From contig NC_013132.1 in NCBI RefSeq assembly GCF_000024005.1, positions 4,148,001 to 4,212,000 of the forward strand: a stretch of DNA of 64,000 nucleotides. The letters are read 5' to 3'. The notes under the pieces are model-generated. The model saw only the letters and a list, made by a program, of their open reading frames with translations. It had not been told where the DNA came from and made no database searches. Numbering within the stretch: position 1 is the first letter of the stretch; the number at the start of each line of letters is the position of its first letter. Shown here one piece after another: positions 17,388 through 53,115 of this stretch. A program made the position numbers and the translations under genes. The DNA comes from Chitinophaga pinensis DSM 2588 (GTDB taxonomy: Bacteria; Bacteroidota; Bacteroidia; Chitinophagales; Chitinophagaceae).

Positions 17388-18563
17388 ATGCAACAAATCG
17401 CCCAGAAACATCTTAACAAATTAAATCTCCTCCTGGAAAATTATCGTACTACAAACGATACTTTCCTGAAAGGGAAACTGGGTCTGATCTATTATTATTC
17501 CCACCTTTATAAAGTTACTGAAGCGCCCGCATTGAAATGCAAGACGGAAGATCTGATCGGAGAAGTCTTTGCAAATATCAATGCGGGCGTTCCCGCTTTA
17601 ATGGGCGCCTCACTCAGTAGTGGTGGCGCCGGTTTTGGTTATGCCCTGAACGCAATGTCCCTACAGGGATTCCTGCAGTTCGAAGTAAACGACGAACTGG
17701 AAAATCTGGATGAATTCCTGTACAGATCCGCCCTCGACCTGATTGCCGCAGATAATTTCGACTTTCTGCATGGCGCCCTGGGCGTGGTACATTATTTCAC
17801 AGAAAGAATGCATACCAGTCCGCAGGTAGCTGTATACCTGGATAGTCTGATCGAAAAGATCTGCCTGAACGCCGTAGAAGAAGACGGTGGATACTGGTTT
17901 AAAAACAGCCAGATCAAAATTGACGGAGAAGACGTGATCAGTTTCGGCCTATCACATGGTCAGTGCGGCATACTGCTGATATTACTCAATGCGTATGCGC
18001 ATTCTGTACACAAAGAGCTGATCAGAAAAGTAATTACTGGCGGCATACACTTTATACTCAAGCATAAAATAGACATAGACTTCTCTCTGAACGAATATTC
18101 GTTTTTTCCTTTCATCATGAAATCAGACGCCCGTGAAATATCCGCTCCCAACAGAATGGGATGGTGTTACGGTGATCTGAACGAGGTATTATTACTGTAC
18201 CGTGCAGGTAAACTGTTCAATGACGACAACCTCCTCATGCTGGCAGACCTTATAGGTGTGCAGAGTATGATGCGTCAGGATGAAAATGCGACAATGGTCA
18301 TCTCCTCCGGATTTTGCCATGGCGCCGCAGGTCTCGCACAGTTCTGTAAAACGTTGTACAATGAAAGAGGATTAGAACAATACCGGAAAGGATATGAGTA
18401 CTGGATCGAACGTACGATTATCCTGCTGGAAGAAGAACTGCCCCAGAATATTTATGCAGGCAAAGAAGGAGATGTGTTGGAAGGCGCTATAGGCGTAGCT
18501 TTCACGCTGCTCTCTTATGTGTCTGAGCATGAACTGAACTGGAGCAAAGCGTTTTTATTATGA
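17388..18563 (+). CDS. lanC: Lanthionine synthetase C-like cyclase LanC
   Basis: 391 residues, the usual LanC length. The alpha/alpha-toroid motifs are present: GLSHGQCGILL (~188-198), GWCYGD with zinc ligand Cys260, and GFCHGAAGL with zinc ligands Cys310 and His311. LanC uses the bound zinc to activate the core Cys and close lanthionine rings onto Dha/Dhb made by LanB. It is the last gene of the lanthipeptide locus on this strand, 93 bases after the response regulator, possibly with its own promoter. All catalytic residues look intact. Confidence 0.93.
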   Translation: MQQIAQKHLNKLNLLLENYRTTNDTFLKGKLGLIYYYSHLYKVTEAPALKCKTEDLIGEVFANINAGVPALMGASLSSGGAGFGYALNAMSLQGFLQFEVNDELENLDEFLYRSALDLIAADNFDFLHGALGVVHYFTERMHTSPQVAVYLDSLIEKICLNAVEEDGGYWFKNSQIKIDGEDVISFGLSHGQCGILLILLNAYAHSVHKELIRKVITGGIHFILKHKIDIDFSLNEYSFFPFIMKSDAREISAPNRMGWCYGDLNEVLLLYRAGKLFNDDNLLMLADLIGVQSMMRQDENATMVISSGFCHGAAGLAQFCKTLYNERGLEQYRKGYEYWIERTIILLEEELPQNIYAGKEGDVLEGAIGVAFTLLSYVSEHELNWSKAFLL

Positions 18564-18707: not shown

Positions 18708-18919
18708 GGGGACTCTTTGTAGCGATAGCTATGCCCCACACCCTTCATTTTTCGTAGAACATTCACATTGGGACCTTTTGTAGCGATAGCTATGTCCCAC
18801 ACCCATTATTTCCTTTAAACGTACAGATCGGGACTCTTTGTAGCGATAGCTATGTGCTGTACCCGCTGTTGCCTTTAAAAATTCGCATTGGGACTTTTAG
18901 TAGCGATAGCTGTGCCCCG
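18708..18919 (+). repeat. 60-bp tandem repeats with hairpin-forming core (3.5 units)
   Basis: A core of ~35 bases (GGGAC, CTTTTG, TAGCGATAGCTATG, CCC, ACACCC) recurs at 18709, 18770, 18830 and 18890, i.e. with periods of 61, 60 and 60. The 25-base segments between cores are also related (TTTAAA-like and ATTC-CATT words), so the whole 60-bp unit is repeated. Each core has TAGC-GATA-GCTA as a small stem-loop; in copies 1, 2 and 4 the flanks pair as well (GGGG with CCCC at 18708/18734; GGGAC with GTCCC at 18770/18794; GGG with CCC at 18890/18915). Copy 3 has lost the outer pairing and copy 4 is truncated. No protein is encoded. Position: the leader of the antiterminator-NRPS operon. The rest of 18564-19021 holds only the promoter elements. 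Confidence 0.85.
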
Positions 18920-19021
18920 CTGGTAGAAACAATAAAAATACCGCAAACCCAGGGGCTTCTACTGTTAACCGAATTAGCAATCTGTATCAATTTCTTTAAT
19001 GACCTCTTTAAACCGCATTGT

Positions 19022-19546
19022 ATGTCCAAATTTAACGTTGGTTGGTATCTCCTTTATACAAGACCCCGGCAGGAAGCCAGAGTAGCTAAGGAAATGGCGG
19101 ACAAAAACATACAGATATACCTGCCCTATACAACAGTAACAAGAAGATGGACTGACAGGATCAAAGTACTTGAAGTACCGCTCTTTCCATCCTATGTATT
19201 CGTGCACCTCACCAATATGCATGAATTCTACTACGGATCAAACCTGGAAAGCGCCTGCAGTTATGTACGTTTCGGTAATGAAGTAGCCCGTGTAAGTGAT
19301 GCGGCTGTTGATGCTGTAAGGACGATCGCTAAAGCCGGTAATAACCTGGAAGTTTCCAGCGAACGTTTTACCCCTGGTCAGCAGATGATGATTAAAGAAG
19401 GCCCGCTCTGCGGTCTGAACTGCGAAGTGATACAATACAAAGGCAAAGATAAAATACTCGTACGTGTGCATATGCTGCAAAGAAGCATTATGGCAGATAT
19501 GCCGGCCAGCGTACTGATCCCGTTTCAGGAAGAACAACAATTATAA
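19022..19546 (+). CDS. NusG-paralogue transcription antitermination factor (UpxY/LoaP-like)
   Basis: 174 residues: an NGN domain (WYLLYTRPRQEARVAKEM, then PLFPSYVFVHL near residue 60, both hallmark segments) and a C-terminal KOW domain (FTPGQQMMIKEGPLCGLNCEVIQYKGKDKILVRVHML). It is a specialised paralogue rather than housekeeping NusG, which lies beside rplK in most genomes. UpxY and LoaP proteins act on their own long operon through leader sequences, suppressing pausing and termination. Here it is the first gene of a >45-kb operon, 30 bases before a 21-kb NRPS gene. The start at 19022 is chosen because the longer ORF from 18854 would encode the repeat region and adds 56 unrelated residues. 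Confidence 0.88.
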   Translation: MSKFNVGWYLLYTRPRQEARVAKEMADKNIQIYLPYTTVTRRWTDRIKVLEVPLFPSYVFVHLTNMHEFYYGSNLESACSYVRFGNEVARVSDAAVDAVRTIAKAGNNLEVSSERFTPGQQMMIKEGPLCGLNCEVIQYKGKDKILVRVHMLQRSIMADMPASVLIPFQEEQQL

Positions 19547-31500: not shown

Positions 31501-34500
31501 TCAGCTAAGTAATGGTCAGTCAATAGAACTGCCGGCGCTGCCTGTTCAGTATAAAGATTACAGTGCATGGCAACAGGCACAGTTACAGGGTGGTCAGCTG
31601 GAAACAGCAGGAGCTTACTGGCGGAACCAGTTCGCCGATGGCATCCCTGTGCTGGATTTACCCGTTGATAATTCCCGTCCTGCTGTGAAGACCTATGCAG
31701 GTCAGACATTGCGGATGGAATTGAACAAAACGCAACTGGCAGGTTTATATGAAACAGGTCGCCGTAATGAGGCAAGTTTATACATGACCCTGTTGGCGAG
31801 TGTAAAAGGATTACTATATCGTTACACTGGTCAGTCAGATATCGTAATTGGTAGCCCTGTAGCAGGTCGTAACCACGAATTACTGGCACGTCAGCTGGGT
31901 TTCTATGTAAACACACTGGCATTGCGTACACAGTTCGACGGCAGGGATAGCTTTGATCGTCTTTTACAGGCAGTGAGACAGGTGGTGTTAGGTGGTTTTG
32001 AACACCAGGACTATCCTTTTGACCGCCTGGTGGAAGAACTGGATGTACAGCGCGATATGAGCCGCAGCCCGCTGTTTGATGTGATGCTTGTGTTACAGGA
32101 CCGTGATGCACGTGGTGTGTCTCAGCAATTCCGTAGTAATGCACTGCAATGGGAAGAAGTGAATATGGATACGGCAGTCAGCAAGTTTGACCTGACATTG
32201 ATTTTTAAAGAACACGCAGCCGGCATCTCAATAGAGATAGAATATAATACCCGGTTGTTCAGTGCAGAAAGAATAGCGCGTTTCGCATCACACTATAGTG
32301 AATTTGTCAATGAGATAGTTGCTGACAGCAGCATTGCCCTGGCAGATATCTCTTATCTGTCTGCAGAAGAACTCAACCGCGTATTACATACATTCAATCA
32401 TACCGGTAGCAGTGTTTATCCTGCCGATCGTAGTATACACAGCTTGTTTGAAGAAAAAGCCCTGCGTATGGGTGAGAGCATCGCCGTGGTATATGAAGAC
32501 CGTCAGCTAACCTACGCGGCATTGAACAGTGCCGCAAATAAAATAGCCGATTATCTGCGCCGTGAACATGGTGTAGTAAATGGCGACCTGGTAGGGGTAA
32601 TGATGGAACGCTCAGAACAGCTGATTGTCTGTTTACTGGGTATCTTAAAGGCAGGTGCGGCATATGTGCCGATAGACCCTTCTTACCCTGCATCCCGTAT
32701 CAGTTATATGCTGGAAGATAGTCTTCCGAGAGTAGTCCTGACAGCTGCTTTGGCCGCGGCAGCACTAAGCAATGGTGTAGACAATGGGAATGTTGATACT
32801 GCCAATGATGCTAATGCACTGGCTTACATTATTTATACTTCCGGTTCTACCGGTAAGCCTAAAGGTGTGATGGTACCACACATCGGTGTCGTTCGCCTGG
32901 TGTATGCGCCGAACTATGTTACGTTCAGCGAAGAAGACAGACTCCTGCAGACGGGCTCTGTATCATTTGATGCCAGCACCTTTGAAATATGGGGCATGCT
33001 GCTGAACGGTGGTACCCTGTACCTGCTGGATCACGATAAACTGATGGACGCAGATATACTGAAAGACACCATTCAACAGCATAATATCACTATGATGTGG
33101 TTCAGTGCGCCCTGGTTTAATCAGCTGGTAGATAACGACCCTTCCTTGTTTGAAGGATTGAAAGATATACTGGTAGGAGGTGATAAATTATCTCCTGCAC
33201 ATATTAACGCGGTACTTTCGTTGTACCCGGATATCAATATCATTAATGGTTACGGTCCGACGGAGAATACAACTTTCTCTATCTGTTACCCGATCCGGGA
33301 AGCCCAGACCGGCGCAATACCATTAGGTTATCCTGTCAGCGGTACACAGGTATACATCCTGGATAAACAATTCCGTCCGTTACCTGTAGGTAGCTACGGC
33401 GAACTATATCTGGCAGGTGATGGTCTGGCTACTGGTTACCTGAATATGGATGACCGCAACAGGGAACGTTTTGTCGATAATCCATTCAAACCAGGTACAC
33501 GCATGTACAGTACCGGAGATATCGGCAGATGGAACAATAAAGGAGAAGTAGAATTTACAGGTCGTACCGATGACCAGGTAAAAATAAGAGGCTTCCGTAT
33601 TGAGCCAGGTGAAATAGCGGATGCTATCCTGGAACATACAGCAGTGAAAGATGCCGTGGTAATACCATTTACGACAGCTGCCGGTGAAAAGGAACTGGCT
33701 GCCTATGTGGTATGGACGGCAGCAACAGCAACAGCTGCCCTGCAATCCTTCCTGCGAGACAGATTACCTTCCTACATGCAACCCGGCTGTTACATCGATA
33801 TGGAAGTACTGCCTTTAAATGCAAACGGAAAGGTAGACAGGGATGGCCTGCCTGCTCCTCAGCTTGAACTGACAGCAGCACTGGAAGCACCGCGTAATGC
33901 AACTGAAACTGCATTATTGTCCATCTGGAAAACAATATTGCAGAGAGAAGATATCGGCATCTATGACAATTTCTTTGATAAAGGGGGGCACTCGTTAAGA
34001 GCATCCAGACTGCTTGCGGGTATCCATAAGGAACTGAACGTGAAACTATCACTGAAGACCTTATTCCTGCATAATACCATCGCCGCATTATCTGAAGTGA
34101 TCGCAGCTGCGGATAAGGTAAGCTATGAAGCATTGACACCGGTAGCCGAACAGGTACATTATAATGTGTCACATGCACAGAAGCGCCTGTGGATACTGGA
34201 TCAGATGGAAAGCAACACCAGTGCGTATAATATCCCGGGCGCTTACAATATAGAAGGTCAGCTGGATAAAACAATACTGGATGCTGCGCTGAATATACTG
34301 CTGGGAAGACACGAGAGTCTGCGTACAATCTTCATCAAATCCGCTGGCGAGCCAAAACAACAGGTACTTGCTGCGGATAAGGTAAAAGCGCAGATTGCTT
34401 ACCATGATCTGAGAGAGGACGCCAATAAGGAAGCCACAGCGGAACAACTTTTACATGCAGCTATGCATAATGGCTTTGCCCTGCATACCTGGCCTTTGTT

Positions 34501-37500
34501 CCGTGCTTCGCTGATACAACTGGAAGCAGAACGTTACATCTTTGTTTTCTGTATTCACCATATTATTTCAGATGGTTGGTCACAGGGTGTGATCGGTAAG
34601 GAGATCTCTGCTATCTATAATGCATTGATAGCAGGCCGGACCCCTGAATTGTCAACCCTGTCTGTACAATATAAAGACTATACCGGCTGGCATAGCCGTC
34701 TGTTGGAAGGACAGTTTGGGGAAGAGGCAAAACACTATTGGAGCAAACGTTTTGACAAGCCTGCTCCATGGTTGAATATGCCGGCAGACAGATTACGTCC
34801 ACGCCTTCAGACATTCGATGGAGATGTAGTTAAATGCCGTTTCGGCACAGCTGTAACAACACGTTTACAACAGTTCAGCAGAGAACAGGATGCAACCCTT
34901 TTTATGAGTCTGCTGGCCCTGGTAAACACGTTGTTATATCGCTATACAGGTATCGATGATATCGTCATTACTTCTCCGATAGCAGCACGAGAACATGCCG
35001 ACCTGAATGACCAGATCGGTTTCTTTGCCAATACACTGCCTTTAAGAACACGCTTTTCTGACGAACAGAGCTTTGAAGCCCTGTTACAGGAAGTGAAGGA
35101 TACAACCGTAGCGGCATACCGCTATCAGATGTATCCTTATGATATGGTCATTGAAGACGCTACACAACAATACGATCCGAGCCATGCAGCTTTATCAGAT
35201 GTAATGCTGGTATTGCAGAGTAATGAATCCACTTCACTGGATCTGCAAGGTACAGTGACAGCTGCGCTGGATCTTTCCACAAATACTGCCAGATTTGATC
35301 TCGTTTTCATCTTCACGATGGAAGAGGGAGAGCTATGCCTGGACCTCGGCTTCAATACGAATATCTACGACAGAGCGCGTATCGTTAGCATATCACAGGC
35401 CTTAACAGTACTGACAAATAACATGTTGTCAGCACCTGCGATTACAGTGAAAGAGCTGGCGGTGAAAGATATCCCGGCAGATGAAGTGTCTGATAAGGAC
35501 ATCCCAATGGCGATCATGAATGGTCACCTGGTATATGCGGCTGAAGTGAATGCCGCTCTGGAGACTTTGCCTGGTATCATAGCAGCGAATGCCCAGGTGA
35601 CGGAGGAGAATACACTGGATGTATTCATAACACCGGGTGGTGAAGAAGGACATACGATTGCCCGGTTACTCAACATCGCCCTGGATGAGCATAGAGAAGA
35701 TAAACAGGTCTACACACTCCCTAACGGGTTACCGATCTGTTACAAGAACAAGACAGAGACAGACTTTACTTATCACGAGGTATTTGAGCAACATGCTTAC
35801 CTGAGGAATGATATCACCATTCATCCCGGTGATGTCATATTCGATGTAGGCGCTAACATTGGTATGTTCAGCATGTATGCAGGACATCACTTCCCTGGTT
35901 GCCGTGTATTCGCCTTCGAACCGATACCACCGATCTACAATTGTCTGGCTGCTAATGCCGCTATGTACAATTTAGGTATTACGGCGATGAATATGGGGCT
36001 GTCCACCGAAGAGACGACGGCAGAATTCGTATACTATCCTAACAACACCATCATCTCGGGCCGTTTTGGCGACGCCATAGAGGACAAGGAAGTGGTACGC
36101 CGCTACCTGCAGAACAAATTGGATAGTGAAGGCAGCACCATGTCAGAAAAACACATGGAAGAGATACTGGAAGATATGATCCGTTCCGAGAAATGGGAAT
36201 GCCGGCTGTCTACCGTATCCAATGTGATGAGAGAACAGGGTGTTGAATGGATCGATCTGCTGAAAGTTGACGTGGAAAAGAGCGAATGGGACATTTTGCA
36301 GGGTATTGAAGCGGCTGACTGGAAACGTATCCGGCAGGTGATTGTGGAAGTACATGATACGGACGGTCGTCTTGAACGTATTACCCGTCTGCTGGAAGAA
36401 CATGGCTTCGGCGTATATGTAGAACAGGAAGAAGAATTGGCTGGAACAGCGCTTTATAATATCTACGCGATTCATCATCAGCATCAGCGAGCAGCGGCTA
36501 CTCCTGCTGCCGTGAAACCAGGATGGAACGATGTAGCTGCTTACTACACGCATATCAACGGTATGATACATGACAGACTGCCCGCTTACCTGGGTAATGT
36601 CAATGTGTACCTGACTGATTATACAAATGCAATTCAAAAAAGGAGGATTGATGCAGTAAAAACCTACAATGCCACCTTGAAGGGAGTGCCGGCGGCACAG
36701 CCCACGTCCCTTCAGCTGGTGGTGGCTGCTACCTTTACAGCAGATCCTTTATCAGATTATATCACCTGGTGGACAGACCGCTTCAGTATTCCTGTACAGG
36801 TAAAACTGGCACCTTACAACCAGGTCTTCCAGGAACTCCTGAATGATGACAGCCTGAGCGCCCGTAACAAGGATATCAACCTGTTGCTGGTACGCTGGGA
36901 AGACTGGATCAGAGACGCCAGGGGAACAGCTGCTGAACAACGCCAGTTGGTAACACAAAGCCTGGAACAACTGATCTCTGTTTTACAGTCGGCTCAACGG
37001 CAGGCATTGTACATGGTCGGTGTAATACCGCCTGTAGCAGCGGCTTGTCCTGATACTGAGATGTTCCTTTTCCTGGAACAGATTAATTATCGCTGGACGG
37101 CGGCGCTTGCCGGGATGGACCATGTACATACACTGGACCTGAGCAGCATTGGAGAACGCTTTGGAATAGCGGAGCTATATGATACGCAACGTGATAAACT
37201 GGGTCATATCCCATTCCAGGAAGAAGTCTATGCAGCCGTGGCAACCATGGTGGCCAGACAGATCAGGGCTTACAAACAACCATCGTTCAAACTGATCGTA
37301 CTGGACTGTGATAATACTTTATGGTCTGGGGTGGTAGGAGAGGATGGCGTGAACGGGATTCAGTTGTTACCCGAACATATCGCGCTGCAACGTTTCATGA
37401 AGCAGAAGAAAGAAGAAGGTTTCCTGCTGGCATTGTCCAGCAAGAACAATGAGGCGGATGTATGGGAGGTTTTCGAACAGCGTACGGATATGGTGCTGCG

Positions 37501-40500
37501 GAAGGATGATTTCGTCACCTGGCGTATTAACTGGAATAATAAGGCGGCTAACATACAGGAAATCGTAACAGAACTGAATATCGGTATTAACGCCTGCTGT
37601 TTCATAGATGATAGTCCGGTAGAATGTACCGCTGTCACAGCTGCCCATCCTGAAGTACTCGTATTGCAGTTACCGGAAGAAACCAGTTTTATACCACGTT
37701 GGTTGTCGCATATCTGGGCCTTCGATAAGTTCACCGTAACTGAAGAAGACAGAAAACGTACTGAGATGTACCAGGCAGAAAAAGAACGTCGGAACATCCT
37801 GGAAGCACAGCCTACTATTGGTGATTTCCTTGCACAGTTACAATTACAGATCATCGTGCAGGATGTACAGGAAGCCGATATTCCACGTGTGGCACAGTTG
37901 ACGGAACGTACCAATCAGTTCAATCTGAATGGACAGAAGAAGACGGCACACGAGATCGAGGCATATATGCTGGGTGGCGCCCGTCATTGTAAGACAATCC
38001 GGGTAACAGATAAATTCGGTGATTACGGTCTGACAGGCGCATTGATCACGACTATCCAGGAAGACAGCCTGCTTGTAGACACCTTCCTGCTGAGTTGTCG
38101 TGTGTTGGGGCGTCAGGTAGAGCAAAGTATGCTGGCAGTGCTGAAAGAACAGGCACAGGCAGCCGGATTGCAGAAGATTGTTTGCCATTTCACAGATACA
38201 GGCAAAAACAAGCCTTTTGCACAGTTCCTGGCTTCCACATCCTGGACCGCGGTGCAGACAGAAGGCAAATCCACTTTTTACGAGATATTGCCAGAGAACA
38301 TAGTTGCTGTATTGCCTGTACTGACAAGTGCGGCACCGCCGGAACCTGTAGCGACAACGACAGAAGAATCAACAGTACTGGTATTTGACCATATTGGTGT
38401 AGCGGTAAGCGATCTGGAAGCATCCCTGAGATTCTATACAGATAGCGGATTCACTGCATCAGAACTGGTATATGATCCTATACAGAATGTAGAAATTTAT
38501 ATGTGCCGGACAGCATCTGGCGGTGGTATTGAATTAATCGCTGCACACGATGAATTATCTCCGGTAAACAATATTATCAGCCGTAACGGCGATCAGCCTT
38601 ATCACTGGTGTTACCGTGTGAAGGACATTGATACGCTGTTCGACAGGCTTACAAGAAAAGGTTTGGCGTTTGAAATAGTAAAGCAACCGGAGCAGGCTGT
38701 ATTGTTCGGCTATAAACGGGTCGTGTTCATCGACATTAAACAAATCGGCCTTGTCGAGTTTATAGAAGACAATGACAGTCTGCCCGGTCAGCTGCTACCG
38801 GCAGAGATGGAAATCAGTATGGTCACTTTCGATATCCAGCCGGCATTACAATTCTTCCAGCTGGTAGGGTATAGGGAAACAAGACATATCACAGATCATG
38901 TGAACAAAGAGTATGTCGTTGTTCTGCATACTGCCGCAAATGGTCCTGCAATACGCCTGATCATGCCGCTGCCTGAAGCAGTTGCAGAAAGAGCCGCATT
39001 CCTGCAACAGAACGGTCCGCATATTCATCGCCTGCTGTTGCATACTGATACGACAGAGAAGTATCCAATGCATCTTTTGCCGCCTTATTTTACGGTAGAA
39101 GAAGAACATAAAACAGTATTGACGGATGTTGCAGATTGGGAACCGGTGCTGGCAATGGAAAAAGATGCCACACACTATGCTTTGCAGCTGCCATTACTCT
39201 ATAACAGTGGCGCCAGACTCCTGCAGATACCTGTATACCAGGTACAGAAACAAAGAATGAATACCGGTATGCGTCCACCGGAAACAACGGTAGAAAAGGC
39301 ATTGTTCCGTATATGGGTAGAAGTACTGCGCCATGAAGCATTTGGCGTACAGACTTCTTTCCTGGAAGCTGGTGGTAACTCCATCAGGGCCACACAGATA
39401 CTATCCCGTATTTACAGGCAGTACGGTGTGGAATTACTCCTGACAGAGTTCTTCAATAAACCGACAATCAGCGCACTCGCTGCATTGATAGAAAAGAAAC
39501 AACCGGAAGGGTTCGAAAGTATCCGGGTATTACCAGCAATGGAACACTACCCGCTTTCCTTCTCTCAGAAACAACTCTGGATCTCAGATCAGTTTGAAAG
39601 TTCATCAGGATCTGCGTTTAACATCCCGGTGGCGTACATACTCGAAGGTCAATTGGATAAGACGGCTTTAACAAAAGCTTTCAGTCGTCTTGTAGAGAGA
39701 CATGAGATCTTACGTACGGTCTTTGTAAAAGCCGGAGATGAGGCAGCACAACAGGTATTACCTGCAACGGACGACTATAGCACACCTGAATGGATAGACT
39801 TATCAACGACACCGGATGCGGAAGCTGCTGCCATGAAAATCGCTGATGAAGAGGCTCAGGTTGCCTTTAACCTGGAAACAGGTCCTTTACTGCGGATTAA
39901 GGTGCTGCAATTGTCGGCAGAACGTAATCTCTTATTATTTACAACACATCATATTGTTTCTGATGGCTGGTCGTCAGGTATCATGCTGCGGGAAGTGGCG
40001 GTATTCTACAACGCCATCCGCAATGGCAGAAACCTCGTATTACCTGCCTTACCTGTACAATACAAAGACTATGCTGCATGGCAACAGGAACAGATGCAAC
40101 GTCCGGCATTCGCTGCACATCGCCAGTACTGGCTGAGCCAGTTCCAGGACGGCGTGCCTGCTTTACAGTTGCCATACGATTTCCCGCGTCCCTCATTCAA
40201 AAGCTACAATGGGAACACCCGCAGCTTTATACTGGATAAAACGCAGACAGCAAAGATCAAGACCTTTATGGAACAGCAGGAGATCAGTCTCTTTATGTTC
40301 TTTGTAAGTGTCACTAAACTGTTGCTCTACCGTCTCTCAGGACAGCAGGAACTCGTGGTTGGTTTCCCTGTTTCAGGCCGCTATCACCCGGAACTGGAAG
40401 ATCAGGTAGGCTGTTATGTCAATACCATCGCGCTTCGCTCTAAACTGGATACACAGTCCAGTTTACAGGATTTCGTTCATGAGATCAGGCAGAGTATCAC

Positions 40501-48537: not shown

Positions 48538-50412
48538 ATGTGTGGAATAACAGGAATTTTAGATTTCGGAAAACGTAAGAGAGTTGAAAGAGAAGAGGTA
48601 AAGAAAATGGCAGATGCGATCCAGCACCGTGGTCCGGACGATTTTGCTTATTTGATTGAAGATAATATCGGTCTGGGCTTCAGACGCCTGAGCATCATTG
48701 ACCTCGCGCATGGACAACAGCCTTTCTACAGCGAAGACGGCAGCGTAGTGCTGATCTGTAACGGAGAAATTTATAACTACAAGGAACTGCGTCAGGAACT
48801 GATCGCAAAAGGATATCGCTTCAAAACAGAATGTGATGTCGAAGTGATCGTACACCTCTACGTAGCCTATGGTATTGATTTCATCAACAGATTGAACGGA
48901 CAGTTCGCCTTCTGTATCTATGACAAAAAACAGGATACCATGTACCTGGCCAGAGACCAGTTTGGTATTTGTCCGCTGTTCTACAAGGTTGTAGATCAGA
49001 TGCTGATATTCGGTTCTGAGATCAAGGCCCTGCTGAGAAACAGGCACGTAAGAAAAGAAGTAAATCCGACGGCACTCGACCAGCTGTTTTCTTTCCCTGG
49101 TATAGTAAGTCCGGTTACGTTCTTTAAAGACATTAACAGCCTGAAAGCAGGACACTATCTCAAGGTAAAAGGCACAGATATACAGGTAAAAGAATACTGG
49201 GACCTGGATTATCCCCTTGAGTCGATCCATCAGGAAGAAAAAGATGAAGACTATTACGTAGACCGTCTGGAAGAGTTGCTCCTGAAATCAGTGAAATATC
49301 GCCTGAATGCGGATGTGCCGGTGGGTTTCTATCTTAGCGGCGGACTGGATTCCAGTCTGATCGCTTCTATGATGAAGCGCCTGAATCCGGATGCATCTTA
49401 CAAATCCTTTTCAATTGGTTATCCCCGTGCAGAAGATAGCGAGCACGATGAAAGAATATACCAGCGCTTAGTAGCAAATAAAGTAAATTCTATTCACAAA
49501 GAGATAGAATTTGACTGGTCACAGGTGGCTGCAAAACTGAAAGACGCTGTTTACTTTTCAGAAGGTGCCTTAAAAGAATCTTACAACACCTGCTCCCTTG
49601 CTTTGTCTGAAAACGTACGTAATAGCGATATCAAAGTAGTGCTCTCCGGCGAAGGTTCTGATGAATTGTTCGGTGGATATGTTGGTTACCGTTTTGATGT
49701 ACAGCGCAGAGGTTTTGAAAGGCCGGCAGGACTGGAAGAAATGTTGGAAGCCCAATTAAGAGAGAAGCTCTGGGGAGATCCTGATTTCTTCTATGAAACA
49801 AATCACTACGATTTCAGGAATACGACCAAAGCAGTATATTCCAATAAGATCAATGACAACTTCGATACGATCGACTGTCTGGAAACATTACCTATTAACA
49901 AGAGCAGACTGGAAGGTCGTCATCCGTTCCATAAACGTTCTTACCTGGATCTGAAATTACGCTTGTCAGATCACCTGATCTCCGATCATGCCGACAGAGT
50001 GAATTATGCCAATTCTGTAGAGGGTCGTTATCCTTTCCTGGACATCGAATTGGTAGATTTTATCAAGACGATCCCGCCTGCGGTGAAGCTGAAGCACATG
50101 ACGGAGAAATACATCCTGAAACAGGTGGCGAGACGTTATCTGCCGGAAAGTATCAGCACTCGTCAGAAATTTAGCTGGGTAGCACCGGGCAGTTCACAGC
50201 TGCTGCAGAATAACGTGGAATGGATTAATGATATGTTGTCTTACAGCCAGATCAAACGTCAGGGTTATTTCAACCCGGACACAATAGAAAGGATCAAACG
50301 TATTTATTCAGCACCTGATTTCAGACTGAATCTGCCATACGATACCGATCTGCTGATCATTGTACTCACATTCAACACCTTCCTCGAAGTATTCGATATG
50401 CCCTCCCTCTAG
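48538..50412 (+). CDS. asnB: Glutamine-hydrolysing asparagine synthetase (AsnB-like)
   Basis: 624 residues starting MCGITG, so Cys2 is the glutaminase nucleophile after Met removal. The class II amidotransferase domain covers ~1-210 (HRGPDD, CNGEIYNY); the ATP-PPi synthetase domain has the SGGLDSS loop at ~268 and GEGSDELFGGY (~375). It converts Asp to Asn with Gln and ATP, or amidates a related carboxylate. As the sixth gene of an NRPS operon it may supply Asn, or amidate a peptide carboxylate (as AsnB-like enzymes do in some peptide pathways). Spacing to neighbours is 27-28 bases, so it is co-transcribed. Confidence 0.92.
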   Translation: MCGITGILDFGKRKRVEREEVKKMADAIQHRGPDDFAYLIEDNIGLGFRRLSIIDLAHGQQPFYSEDGSVVLICNGEIYNYKELRQELIAKGYRFKTECDVEVIVHLYVAYGIDFINRLNGQFAFCIYDKKQDTMYLARDQFGICPLFYKVVDQMLIFGSEIKALLRNRHVRKEVNPTALDQLFSFPGIVSPVTFFKDINSLKAGHYLKVKGTDIQVKEYWDLDYPLESIHQEEKDEDYYVDRLEELLLKSVKYRLNADVPVGFYLSGGLDSSLIASMMKRLNPDASYKSFSIGYPRAEDSEHDERIYQRLVANKVNSIHKEIEFDWSQVAAKLKDAVYFSEGALKESYNTCSLALSENVRNSDIKVVLSGEGSDELFGGYVGYRFDVQRRGFERPAGLEEMLEAQLREKLWGDPDFFYETNHYDFRNTTKAVYSNKINDNFDTIDCLETLPINKSRLEGRHPFHKRSYLDLKLRLSDHLISDHADRVNYANSVEGRYPFLDIELVDFIKTIPPAVKLKHMTEKYILKQVARRYLPESISTRQKFSWVAPGSSQLLQNNVEWINDMLSYSQIKRQGYFNPDTIERIKRIYSAPDFRLNLPYDTDLLIIVLTFNTFLEVFDMPSL

Positions 50413-50439
50413 CCTTCATACTTAAACTGAACATCATTT

Positions 50440-51156
50440 ATGACAAAGAAACTTGGTATCATCGGAGGCATGGGATCCCATGCAGCTTCGTGGTTATTTA
50501 AGCGGATCACCGATCTGTCTTATGGCGAGAAGGACCAGGAGTATATCGATGTGTTGTTACATAATAATACGGCGATACCTGACAGAACGCGGGCTATCGT
50601 ATACAATGAGACTTCTCCTTTACCGGAGCTACTGCGTTCAGTAAAAATACTAAACAATAATGACGTCGATGTGGCTGTAATGGCCTGCCTGACGGCATAC
50701 CACTTTAAGTCCTCGCTGGCGCCTGTTTTCAATGGCTACTTTGCCGACCCGATCGAATTTACTGTTGAACGTTTACAGGAAATGTTCGGTGACCTGGATG
50801 GCTTGAAGGTGGGTGTTATTGCATCTACCGGCACATTACGGTCACGCATTTTTCAAAAGGCGCTTGAACCACTGGGAGCAACAGTGATCTGCCTGGAGGG
50901 AGACGAACAGGAAAGATATTTCATGGGGCCGATTTATAAACCTGATGGACTGAAATCAGGTCACGCGTCAGCGGAAGCTATCCGTCTCTTTGCACACCAG
51001 GTGCCTTTGCTGCAGGATAAAGGAGCCGATGTGGTTATCGGCGCCTGCTCGGAAGTACCACTTGTGCTGAATGAAGAGAATGTGAAAATGCCTTATGTAG
51101 ACGTGTTTGAATTACTGGCCCAGAAAGTAGTTGATACCTGTTATCAATATATCTAA
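50440..51156 (+). CDS. Aspartate/glutamate racemase family protein
   Basis: 238 residues with the family opening LGIIGGMGSHAASWLFKRI. The two catalytic cysteines expected for this PLP-independent family are present: MACLTAYHF (~87-95; usual form is PCNT) and GACSEVPL (~205; usual form is GCTE). The changes around the first Cys are notable but the thiol is kept. It would interconvert L- and D-Asp (or Glu, or a methylated aspartate). No NRPS epimerisation domain is visible in the window, so this enzyme is a plausible source of a D-configured building block. Confidence 0.87.
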   Translation: MTKKLGIIGGMGSHAASWLFKRITDLSYGEKDQEYIDVLLHNNTAIPDRTRAIVYNETSPLPELLRSVKILNNNDVDVAVMACLTAYHFKSSLAPVFNGYFADPIEFTVERLQEMFGDLDGLKVGVIASTGTLRSRIFQKALEPLGATVICLEGDEQERYFMGPIYKPDGLKSGHASAEAIRLFAHQVPLLQDKGADVVIGACSEVPLVLNEENVKMPYVDVFELLAQKVVDTCYQYI

Positions 51157-51174
51157 CACTTCCATTTTACCGCT

Positions 51175-53115
51175 ATGACAGAAAAACATGCCATCCTGAT
51201 AGGAGGTATAGGGGACGATGCGCATTCCGTAGGTATCGGCTTGCTGGAACTGGGCTTCAGGGAAGCTGGTTTCCATGTGAAGTCGATCGGCATACGCAAT
51301 AGTCTGACAGAGTTTTTTAAGTTGGCGCCATTCTTTGATGCGATCCTTATCTCTAATAAAAATGGCCACGCAGAACTCTATCTACAGGACTTTAATCGCC
51401 TTCTTTCTGAATATCAGTTGAAAGAAAAAAACACCAAACTCTGGTATCTCGGAGGAAGCCTTTCCGTGAGTGAGTCAGACTTTGCCATTAAAAAGCGTTT
51501 TCTGAACATGGGATTCAGTAATGTGTATCCCAAGCCAGTTCCCTTCAGCGAAGTATTGAACAATATCCAGCGCGATCTGCAATACCATAATATTCCCAAA
51601 AAGAACAACCGCCAGCGCTTTGCCAACATGGCAAAGCAAAAGCCTGTAAACTGGTCGGAAGTACATACCGGCCGGCTGACAGACGAACAGCTGGAAAAGG
51701 AAAGACGGGAAGTATTGCAGGAATGGCCAACAGGTACAGATGTATTGCATTCGGAGTACCAGAAAGTCGCCGCAGTGACGGGTACGCTCGACGATTTGTT
51801 ATGGAACAATAAGGTCAGCAATAAATCGCCGCTTTTTCAACCCAGAACAGGCGTCGCCAATATTGAAGATCAGATAGAACTGCTGCAGTACCTGGAATCG
51901 GAAGGCAGCGATGTCAGTTCCGTACAGCTGGATGCTGCCTCCCGTTCAAAACTGTATCACCGTGCCGAAGAAGGGCGCCTGCTCAGTATTGAACGAAAGT
52001 CTTCCCAGTTGAATGGTTTTCCTATTCCGATTTATGGTGTAAGCGAAGTAAGACGTTTGCTCTTATCACTAAAAAGACCTTTTCAGCTAAGAGGTGGTGG
52101 CCCGGACCATCGCTTCACTTACGAGATCGCCCTCAAGGCGGGAGTAAGTGCGCTGGAAGGTGGTTTTATCTGTTATTGCCTGCCTTACGATAAACTGACC
52201 TCTCCGACAGAATCTTTAAAGAGATGGCAGTTTGTAGACCGCCTGGCAGCACGCTACTATGAAATGTTCGGGGTTGCGATCAACCGCGAATATTTTGGGG
52301 TACTGACAGCTACACTGATTGAACCGTCCCTGGCGATTGTGGTCAATGTCATACAGGCAGTAGCCAGCGCCCGGCAGGGAATCGTAAGTATTTCTGCCGG
52401 ATACGCAGAACAGGGCAACCGCTCGCAGGATATCGCCGCGGTAACTGTACTGGATGAGCAGGTCAATTACTACCTGCGTAAATACGGTTTCACCAATTGC
52501 AGGGTAACTACTGTATACCATCAGTTCATGGCTGCTTTCCCTGCAGATTATGCTAAAGCAGAAGAGCTGATCTTTAATTCTTCCATTACGGCTACGCTCG
52601 CCGGCGCAACCAAAGTAATGGTAAAGACCGCCGTAGAAGCCATCCGTATACCGGATCGATATGATAACTCCAAAGCAGTGGCTTTATCAAAACGTGGTGC
52701 GCTCTGCGCAGAGAAATCGTTGCTGAACCACGTGAAAATAAAAGAAGAAAAACAGCTCATACGGAAAGAAGTAAAACAGATCATCGACGTGATCCTCGAA
52801 TTGGGTAACGGCGACATTATCAAAGGTGCGCTGATGGCAATAGAACAGGGCGTCATCGATATCCCATGGTCTCCGAATATCTACAACCAGAACAAGGTTG
52901 TATGTGTACGCGATGTAGAAGGAGCAGTACGTTTTCATGACTTTGGCAATCTGCCTTTTAGTGAAAGTGTAAAAGACTTCCATCACCAGAAAGTCCACAA
53001 AAGGAAAACCATGGAAAGAGACCCCAGTATTTTCTCGCTGTTGGAAAAAGACCTGAGCCGGATCTGGAAAAATGAATACCAACGTTGGCCGCTGGACGGT
53101 CATTATGTAACCTGA
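51175..53115 (+). CDS. Fused coenzyme-B12 glutamate mutase (S + E subunits)
   Basis: 646 residues. The first ~135 are the cobalamin-binding S subunit with the base-off motif Asp15-x-His17-x-x-Gly20 and the later SNKNGHAEL and GGSLSV segments. The rest matches the catalytic E subunit (RGGGPDHRF, GGFICYCLPYDK, EQGNRSQDIAAV). Together they convert L-glutamate to (2S,3S)-3-methylaspartate with adenosylcobalamin. Most bacteria carry S and E as separate genes; here they are one chain joined by a ~40-residue linker. In an NRPS operon this supplies 3-methylaspartate, as known for friulimicin. It sits just before the third acidic A-PCP-C gene. No cobalamin riboswitch is seen. Confidence 0.9.
   Translation: MTEKHAILIGGIGDDAHSVGIGLLELGFREAGFHVKSIGIRNSLTEFFKLAPFFDAILISNKNGHAELYLQDFNRLLSEYQLKEKNTKLWYLGGSLSVSESDFAIKKRFLNMGFSNVYPKPVPFSEVLNNIQRDLQYHNIPKKNNRQRFANMAKQKPVNWSEVHTGRLTDEQLEKERREVLQEWPTGTDVLHSEYQKVAAVTGTLDDLLWNNKVSNKSPLFQPRTGVANIEDQIELLQYLESEGSDVSSVQLDAASRSKLYHRAEEGRLLSIERKSSQLNGFPIPIYGVSEVRRLLLSLKRPFQLRGGGPDHRFTYEIALKAGVSALEGGFICYCLPYDKLTSPTESLKRWQFVDRLAARYYEMFGVAINREYFGVLTATLIEPSLAIVVNVIQAVASARQGIVSISAGYAEQGNRSQDIAAVTVLDEQVNYYLRKYGFTNCRVTTVYHQFMAAFPADYAKAEELIFNSSITATLAGATKVMVKTAVEAIRIPDRYDNSKAVALSKRGALCAEKSLLNHVKIKEEKQLIRKEVKQIIDVILELGNGDIIKGALMAIEQGVIDIPWSPNIYNQNKVVCVRDVEGAVRFHDFGNLPFSESVKDFHHQKVHKRKTMERDPSIFSLLEKDLSRIWKNEYQRWPLDGHYVT

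What the first reader, a model, noticed from the sequence alone, without database searches (positions are those of the whole stretch)
34140..39480. Adenylation-free module C-FkbM-FkbH-VOC-PCP inside an NRPS chain
Seen: after the Val module a full C domain is followed by a short A-like remnant, an FkbM methyltransferase (DVGANIG), an FkbH-like HAD domain (DCDNT), a VOC region similar to methylmalonyl-CoA epimerase and a carrier (Ser6602). Known: FkbH-type proteins load a three-carbon glyceryl unit from 1,3-bisphosphoglycerate onto a carrier; FkbM proteins O-methylate. Inference: module 5 inserts a (methoxy)glycerate in mid-chain, so C5 would form an ester, making a depsipeptide backbone. The role of the VOC part is open: epimerising or oxidising the unit are possibilities.
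Basis: partly seen in the sequence, partly recalled or inferred. Interest (0 to 1): 0.85.

Follow-up and report, generated by a model that had tools for sequence, protein, structure and literature searches.

The report
Glycerate-loading peptide-synthetase module with VOC domain
One module of a giant peptide-making enzyme in a soil bacterium has lost its usual amino-acid loader and instead carries parts that should load, methylate and perhaps flip a three-carbon acid, giving the product an ester link; such glycerate modules are known, but the added glyoxalase-like domain looks like an undescribed enzyme that recurs beside the same loader in several bacterial phyla.

Summary
The anatomy is real. 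Window 34130-39490 (aa 4852-6638 of a 7122-aa NRPS) encodes C5, an adenylation remnant, FkbM, FkbH, VOC and PCP, followed by C6. Three Chitinophaga genomes share the module, and between two of them every part is under purifying selection. C-FkbH-PCP glycerate modules (cystomanamide, vioprolide) and methylated glycerate (dysinosin, suomilide) are known, so mid-chain glycerate alone is not new. Beyond the finding: (1) the 'A-like remnant' is the C-terminal A subdomain into which FkbM is inserted in sibling A-FkbM modules; the catalytic core is gone. (2) The VOC is the unusual part: its clade (H/E/H/E ligands, Gln at a column where Bacteroidia epimerase-like proteins have Glu) follows FkbH in NRPSs of Bacteroidota, Bacillota and Actinomycetota, and stands as a separate gene near FkbH and a carrier protein in apparent surface-acylation operons. 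It therefore most likely acts on carrier-bound glycerate. (3) It is nearer glyoxalase I than solved methylmalonyl-CoA epimerases. Best reading: D-glycerate is loaded, O-methylated, probably epimerised at C2, and esterified by C5. The epimerase step is inference; I found no product or assay. Verdict: new variant of a known kind.

The parts
34130..35446 (+). C5, condensation domain of the module (about aa 4852-5290); HHIISDG motif intact (HH at aa 4994)
   Evidence: Pfam; motif; limits
35516..35689 (+). remnant of the C-terminal adenylation subdomain (aa 5314-5371); the A core up to the A8 hinge is missing
   Evidence: profile of sibling A_C segments: 11.2 bits excised, 4.1 in the whole protein, 14.6 in G049, shuffles at most 3.4; alignment
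35843..36409 (+). FkbM methyltransferase (aa 5423-5611)
   Evidence: PF05050 59.6 bits; NG86 dN/dS 0.03 against G065
36524..36646 (+). possible remnant of the A10 region (about aa 5650-5690), catalytic Lys lost
   Evidence: clear in orthologue G049 (19.1 bits); not above shuffles in the window itself (4.7 against 4.8); alignment
36686..37246 (+). N-terminal part of the FkbH protein (about aa 5704-5890)
   Evidence: matched before FkbH in the NRPS relatives scanned; the N-terminal part of a discrete FkbH (L057) is Pfam FkbH_N
37286..38242 (+). FkbH glyceryl-loading domain (aa 5904-6222): DCDNTLW, SKNNE, DDSPVE, TNQFN, LSCRVLGR
   Evidence: TIGR01686 304.4 bits; motifs
38360..38791 (+). VOC domain, half with the predicted metal site (aa 6262-6405); predicted ligands His6272, Glu6319, His6343, Glu6394
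   Evidence: Glyoxalase_4; ligands invariant in alignments; model
38792..39241 (+). second VOC-like half (aa 6406-6555) without invariant His or Glu; its last 65 residues have pLDDT under 50
39302..39490 (+). peptidyl carrier domain (aa 6576-6638), Ser6602 at 39380-39382
   Evidence: PF00550
39542..40870 (+). C6, condensation domain that takes the chain onward (aa 6656-7098), HHIVSDG

Best explanation
Module 5 inserts a modified glycerate in the middle of a long lipopeptide. FkbH takes D-1,3-bisphosphoglycerate, dephosphorylates it and loads D-glyceryl onto Ser6602 (by homology). The VOC domain, a metal enzyme of the glyoxalase-I kind, then works on the carrier-bound 2-hydroxyacyl thioester: the metal chelates the 2-OH and the thioester carbonyl, a ligand Glu takes the C2 proton, and the enediolate is reprotonated on the other face, giving L-glyceryl-S-PCP, i.e. 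an epimerisation domain for a hydroxy acid (inferred; about 0.45 alone). FkbM methylates one hydroxyl, most likely the 3-OH, because C5 normally uses the 2-position as nucleophile (inferred). C5 joins the peptide from the Val module to the 2-OH as an ester, and C6 passes the depsipeptidyl chain to the next module. The A domain was lost because FkbH replaced it.
For: Domain order, motifs and selection. VOC and FkbH occur together: in the genome scan 10 of 10 NRPS loci and 5 of 7 others; in the protein searches 9 of 9 NRPS proteins (P0002 and P0005 were checked through the same proteins in G029 and G049; several of these are the same genes as in the genome scan). VOC occurs without FkbM in C-FkbH-VOC-PCP (G029, G078), so it goes with FkbH, not with the methyl group. 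Discrete loci FkbH-VOC-ACP-MBOAT (L057) and VOC/FkbH/ACP/acyltransferase (L054; its ACP is just under the Pfam cut-off) point to a carrier-bound substrate. In 395 class genomes, of the 29 VOC loci kept, 6 of the 8 best have FkbH within 1.5 kb against 0 of the 21 lower ones (the cut at 8 was set after seeing the result). H/E/H/E ligands are invariant. Dysinosins, whose FkbH protein is described without a VOC domain, are listed with D-glyceric acid (PMC6520454, PMC10143770), so an L unit would need an epimerase.
Against: No product, assay or metal data. Glu43 of S. coelicolor methylmalonyl-CoA epimerase has no counterpart in the clade, so a two-base mechanism of that exact kind is not available; I propose that ligand Glu6319 and Glu6394 do the work as in glyoxalase I (recalled). 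The H/E/H/E ligands are shared with the epimerase-like set and with glyoxalase I, so they do not tell the reaction. The downstream C domain looks LCL-type by its opening motif in the six modules with VOC that I could read and also in the only one without it (G053), so C-domain type does not decide the configuration. C5 does not group with the C domains before FkbH in the other phyla, so nothing in the sequence proves ester formation. Streptocinnamide contains D-glyceric acid, and I could not learn whether its NRPS has a VOC. L059 (AMP-ligase, VOC, ACP, no FkbH) shows that the VOC substrate need not come from FkbH.
Confidence: 0.5

Rival explanations
1. The VOC domain does not epimerise but uses the same C2 proton abstraction to eliminate the 3-OH (or the 3-O-methyl) and give enol-pyruvyl/pyruvyl, or isomerises the unit in a reverse-glyoxalase manner. 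The unit built in would then be pyruvate- or lactate-like, and C5 would need another nucleophile.
For: The same enediolate intermediate serves both outcomes; nearest solved relatives are glyoxalase I. In Paenibacillus ferrarius P0008 the Pfam list includes MaoC-type and SDR domains, which by eye lie between C and FkbH.
Against: FkbM is the part of the module most like G049 (81% identity; C5 72%) and has the lowest NG86 dN/dS (0.03), which fits a retained hydroxyl being methylated. A pyruvyl unit has no nucleophile for C5, whose HHxxxDG motif is intact.
Confidence: 0.2
2. The module loads and esterifies plain or methylated D-glycerate as in cystomanamide or vioprolide synthetases; the VOC is a structural or gatekeeping domain without catalysis.
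For: Embedded FkbH without VOC is found in 3 of the 8 long-frame FkbH loci of 198 related genomes and in published systems.
Against: All four predicted metal ligands and the Gln are kept in 24 of 24 FkbH-linked rows from three phyla, and stand-alone VOC genes exist near FkbH and ACP, hard to explain for a scaffold.
Confidence: 0.2
3. The VOC is an iron oxygenase (HPPD or hydroxymandelate-synthase-like) that oxidises the glyceryl unit, e.g. to tartronate semialdehyde or hydroxypyruvate.
Against: In HPPD the metal site lies in the C-terminal half with two His and one Glu (recalled). Here a four-ligand H/E/H/E site lies in the N-terminal half, and the C-terminal half has no invariant His or Glu in the ten-sequence alignment.
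Confidence: 0.06
4. The module is skipped or decayed: with its A domain lost, the chain passes over it.
For: The A domain is a remnant; for bonnevillamide the authors suspected that modules 7 and 8, with a defective and a missing A domain, are omitted (PMC13411061).
Against: Purifying selection on every domain between own and G065, intact motifs, conserved in three genomes, and a 7264-aa relative (P0007) with degraded A domain plus FkbH-VOC.
Confidence: 0.04

Closest known systems
Cystomanamide synthetase module 4 (C-FkbH-PCP) and the vioprolide FkbH module
   Same: FkbH stands in place of the A domain in an elongation module; in vioprolide the glycerate is esterified by a C domain called ester-bond-forming (PMC8949500, PMC9581180, passages seen)
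   Different: the passages seen name no FkbM and no VOC; vioprolide's unit is next to the starter fatty acid
Dysinosin DysB / suomilide and varlaxin AerB (methyltransferase, FkbH, PCP, sulfotransferase)
   Same: methyltransferase and FkbH in one NRPS protein; methylated glycerate (PMC6520454, PMC10143770, passages seen)
   Different: first module of the peptide, sulfated, no VOC named; glycerate listed as D in the dysinosins
Discrete FkbH of the alkoxymalonyl-ACP pathway (FkbH, FkbI, FkbJ, FkbK; names recalled)
   Same: same glyceryl-loading family; such a cassette lies in this same gene cluster beyond the window end (L031:18804 to L032:3158; FkbH match 119 bits)
   Different: separate proteins beside a polyketide synthase; no VOC; its motifs differ (DLDETVW, MSCRVMSR)
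Glyoxalase I of Clostridium acetobutylicum (3hdp, 2qh0)
   Same: nearest solved relative of the VOC half, 32% identity, TM 0.86-0.89 on the target; the same H, E, H, E positions in the printed alignment
   Different: free enzyme (activity recalled); here fused to FkbH and a carrier, with a second VOC-like half
Methylmalonyl-CoA epimerase
   Same: VOC fold and metal positions; epimerises C2 of an acyl thioester (recalled)
   Different: no counterpart of S. coelicolor Glu43; Gln and mostly Cys where the Bacteroidia epimerase-like set has Glu and Ala

Membership tests
C-FkbH-PCP glycerate module | FkbH between a C domain and a carrier, no working A domain | tested here: met
C-FkbH-PCP glycerate module | FkbH motifs (DxDxT, SKN, DDSxxE, TNQFN, LSCRxLG; choice of motifs recalled and read from relatives) | tested here: met
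   all five in the window copy; per motif 8 to 11 of the 11 relatives listed match the regex
C-FkbH-PCP glycerate module | glycerate in the product | not testable with these tools
   no product of this cluster was seen in the listing or the passages
Ester-bond-forming C domain | groups with C domains that accept a hydroxyl | tested here: inconclusive
   C5 groups with C domains of its own and the P0007 assembly line; no cross-phylum clade of C domains before FkbH among 40 C domains; no verified reference set at hand
FkbM methyltransferase | Pfam PF05050 above cut-off | tested here: met
   59.6 against 22.7 bits
Methylmalonyl-CoA epimerase | metal ligands His, Gln/Glu, His, Glu (recalled) | tested here: met
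   H6272, E6319, H6343, E6394
Methylmalonyl-CoA epimerase | Glu43-type residue (catalytic role recalled; the title of 6xbs names E43Q) | tested here: not met
   Ile at that column in the alignment to 6xbr; Ile/Leu/Val in 24 of 24 FkbH-linked rows. Caveat: Thr in the 20 Bacteroidia epimerase-like rows outside the clade, so the residue may not be universal among epimerases
Glyoxalase I | H/E/H/E metal site and closest sequence | tested here: met
Glyoxalase I | converts a glutathione or other thiol hemithioacetal | not testable with these tools
   needs an assay
HPPD / 4-hydroxymandelate synthase | 2-His-1-Glu iron site in the C-terminal half (recalled) | tested here: not met
   no invariant His or Glu in the second half of the ten-sequence alignment

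The most novel reading that the evidence does not exclude
The FkbH-linked VOC clade (H/E/H/E ligands, [DE]xxQ motif) is an undescribed enzyme family: a carrier-protein-bound 2-hydroxyacyl epimerase, the hydroxy-acid counterpart of the NRPS epimerisation domain. It turns FkbH-loaded D-glycerate into L-glycerate, both inside NRPS modules of at least three phyla and in discrete operons that put glyceryl groups on bacterial surface polymers.
Probability: 0.4. Interest if true: 0.75.

Novelty: new variant of a known kind. Interest (0 to 1): 0.55.

Why it matters
FkbH should deliver only the D form because it starts from D-1,3-bisphosphoglycerate. If the VOC domain sets the other configuration, it would be a portable stereochemical switch for hydroxy-acid units and a marker for predicting L-glycerate depsipeptides from sequence. 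It would also explain a recurrent FkbH-VOC-carrier arrangement that runs from soil NRPSs to apparent polysaccharide acylation in rumen bacteria. The module further shows how an amino-acid module can turn into a hydroxy-acid module: the A domain degrades (P0007) or shrinks to its C-terminal part (window), while FkbH takes over loading.

Tried and rejected
Tree of 40 C domains to find an ester-specific clade: none across phyla. Downstream C-domain type as a test of the configuration: no discrimination, because the only scorable module without VOC (G053) looks LCL-like too (typing by the opening motif is recalled). PDB sequence search with the remnant plus FkbM: no hit at E 0.1. Literature for FkbH together with glyoxalase, VOC or methylmalonyl-CoA epimerase terms: none of the papers listed held both FkbH and such a term (listings only, 19 of 19, 15 of 70 and 12 of 16 shown). 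Streptocinnamide (D-glycerate) as a test of the epimerase idea: the sources seen do not give the needed domain list. Class-wide Actinomycetes search: 19 of 394 genomes had a match at E 1e-60 (at most 3 candidates scored per genome); only the starting Lentzea genome had VOC in the locus fetched. Of the other 18, 17 are frames of 650-1193 aa and one (L110) of 2264 aa, FkbH with or without a carrier. The model was used only for fold; residues 230-294 are under pLDDT 50. The second prediction job was not used.

Limits of counts: searches scored at most 5, 10 and 6 candidates per genome. The genome scan used one peptide pattern (PYH[LWV]C...), so its 17 loci carry PYHxC by construction; in the class search the FkbH-linked rows have YYH, LHH or FHH there. 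One search lists only part of its matches; loci were given for the best, of which I scanned 29 besides the window (L073-L101). 'Epimerase-like' for the 20 rows outside the clade is my label; no call shows their activity. Of the 13 matches, 3 are the module itself in three genomes, 8 siblings were scanned, L070 is a short frame without an A domain, and one got no locus.
Full report
What is there. The 7122-aa frame at 19577-40945 (+) is an NRPS: an AMP-ligase-like first domain (FAAL by my reading) with PCP, four C-A-PCP modules, then C5, an A remnant, FkbM, FkbH, VOC, PCP and C6. The window lies in a single 9,127,347-bp contig. G065, told as same genus, has a contig of the same length as a Chitinophaga sp. 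YR627 record; C. pinensis DSM 2588 for the window is recalled from the genome size.

Conservation. A search with the FkbH-VOC-PCP part in 198 related genomes gave matches in 31 at E 1e-20. Eight loci in seven genomes lie in frames over 2000 aa: own, G065, G049, G029, G078 (two), G073, G053. VOC follows FkbH in 5 of these 8 and FkbM precedes it in 3 of 8 (own, G065 at 92% and G049 at 70% identity over the part searched). Between own and G065, NG86 dN/dS is 0.03-0.11 for every part of the module, FkbM lowest; YN00 gives 0.04-0.18. VOC1 (0.105) is among the higher ones, with a low dS of 0.17. Against G049 synonymous sites were saturated for most parts, so identities are given: FkbM 81%, PCP 79%, FkbH 73%, C5 72%, VOC1 70%, VOC2 60%, A_C remnant 58%.

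Origin of the A remnant. A search with remnant plus FkbM found 11 of 198 genomes. In the eight sibling modules scanned (L063-L069, L071), FkbM is inserted in an A domain between the A8 region and A10. A profile of the sibling segments before FkbM hits module 5 with 11.2 bits as an excised piece, 4.1 bits within the whole protein, and 14.6 in G049; 400 shuffled sequences reached at most 3.4. The match begins after the first 26 positions, so the core up to the A8 hinge is missing. The A10 piece after FkbM is clear in G049 (19.1 bits) but not in the window (4.7 against a shuffle maximum of 4.8); its lysine is gone in both. P0007, a 7264-aa relative with the same module order, keeps a whole but degraded A domain (99 bits against 322-496 for its other four) before FkbH-VOC and shows no FkbM. 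So the loading role seems to have moved from A to FkbH by stages. That the window module came from an A-FkbM module is inference.

The VOC domain. Two protein searches with the VOC region gave 9 proteins in all, and in each the VOC follows FkbH and precedes a carrier (P0002 and P0005 are the G029 and G049 proteins and were checked there). They include Streptomyces prasinus and Paenibacillus ferrarius. The genome scan gave 17 loci: 10 in NRPS frames, all with FkbH directly before and a carrier after, and 7 outside. Several are the same genes as in the protein searches. Of the 7, five have FkbH as a separate gene on the locus (L046, L052, L053, L054, L057). L058 starts at the VOC itself and shows none; L059 has an AMP-ligase and no FkbH. 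L057 reads FkbH-VOC-ACP-MBOAT; L054 has VOC, a glycosyltransferase, FkbH, a carrier just under the Pfam cut-off (20.5 against 20.8 bits) and an acyltransferase in a sugar-like cluster. L059 reads AMP-ligase, VOC, ACP, N-acetyltransferase-like.

Separation from the common epimerase-like proteins. In 395 genomes of the class, 201 matched a VOC profile at E 1e-12. Of the 29 non-window loci kept, the eight best (L073-L080) have FkbH within 1.5 kb in 6 (not L076, L077); the other 21 (L081-L101) in none. The cut at eight was set after seeing this. In a FastTree analysis of 48 sequences all 24 FkbH-linked ones fall in a group of 28 with support 0.997, together with L059, L076, L077 and L099. Gln stands in 24 of 24 linked rows where 19 of the 20 rows outside the group have Glu and one Gln. 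Cys follows the second ligand His in 22 of 24 linked rows (Gly in L079 and L080) and Ala in 20 of 20 outside. PYH is seen in 13 of 13 NRPS rows and in the 5 stand-alone rows from the pattern scan, but in none of the 6 from the class search. H/E/H/E ligands are in all 48 rows, so they do not separate the groups.

FkbM and C5. FkbM could methylate O2 or O3. A C domain normally takes the nucleophile next to the thioester, which favours the 2-OH for the ester and the 3-OH for the methyl (inference). The tree of 40 C domains gives no ester-specific clade.

What is known. Passages seen: PMC8949500 and PMC9581180 (cystomanamide and vioprolide FkbH modules), PMC6520454 and PMC10143770 (dysinosin, suomilide, varlaxin), PMC4552970 (an FkbH module in oocydin thought not functional), PMC12397197 (vioprolide), PMC9248904 (Chitinophaga products), PMC12662965, PMC11643055 and PMC11794875 (no help); PMC13411061 section 4 part 1 (bonnevillamides and streptocinnamide). 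No description of a VOC domain with FkbH was seen, which are listings of an open-licence library only; most subscription papers are not in it.

Verdict. Ordinary in that glycerate modules exist; unusual in the FkbM-FkbH-VOC set and in a VOC clade tied to FkbH across phyla. New variant of a known kind; the VOC function is the open question.

Noticed in passing
L031:18804 to L032:3158 (about 11.8-16.2 kb past the window end): An alkoxymalonyl-ACP-type cassette in the same cluster: 3-hydroxyacyl-CoA dehydrogenase, ACP, acyl-CoA dehydrogenase, KAS III-like, discrete FkbH, next to a KS-KR-ACP-C protein; so one cluster seems to use FkbH chemistry twice.
   Followed up: partly
window 48538-53115: Asparagine synthase, Asp/Glu racemase and methylaspartate mutase E genes between NRPS genes, suggesting beta-methyl-Asp or Asn supply.
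   Followed up: no
window 18854-19546: A NusG-family gene directly upstream of the 7122-aa NRPS gene, perhaps a dedicated antiterminator for the very long operon; a LanC-like gene lies at 17388.
   Followed up: no
L040 (G078:C240): C-FkbH without VOC followed by a sulfotransferase and an ornithine-cyclodeaminase-like gene, resembling the sulfated glycerate logic of dysinosin; the contig length of the other G078 locus equals a [Flexibacter] sp. ATCC 35208 record, the strain named for a deposited monobactam cluster.
   Followed up: partly
P0008, P0009, L044, L045, L047, L049: Paenibacillus-type versions: between C and FkbH lies an insert of roughly 500 aa; the precomputed Pfam list of P0008 and P0009 names MaoC-type and SDR domains.
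   Followed up: no
L059:6446-9410: Prevotella aff. ruminicola: AMP-ligase, VOC, ACP and an aminoglycoside-N-acetyltransferase-like gene without FkbH on the locus; the VOC may act on another hydroxyacyl-ACP there.
   Followed up: partly
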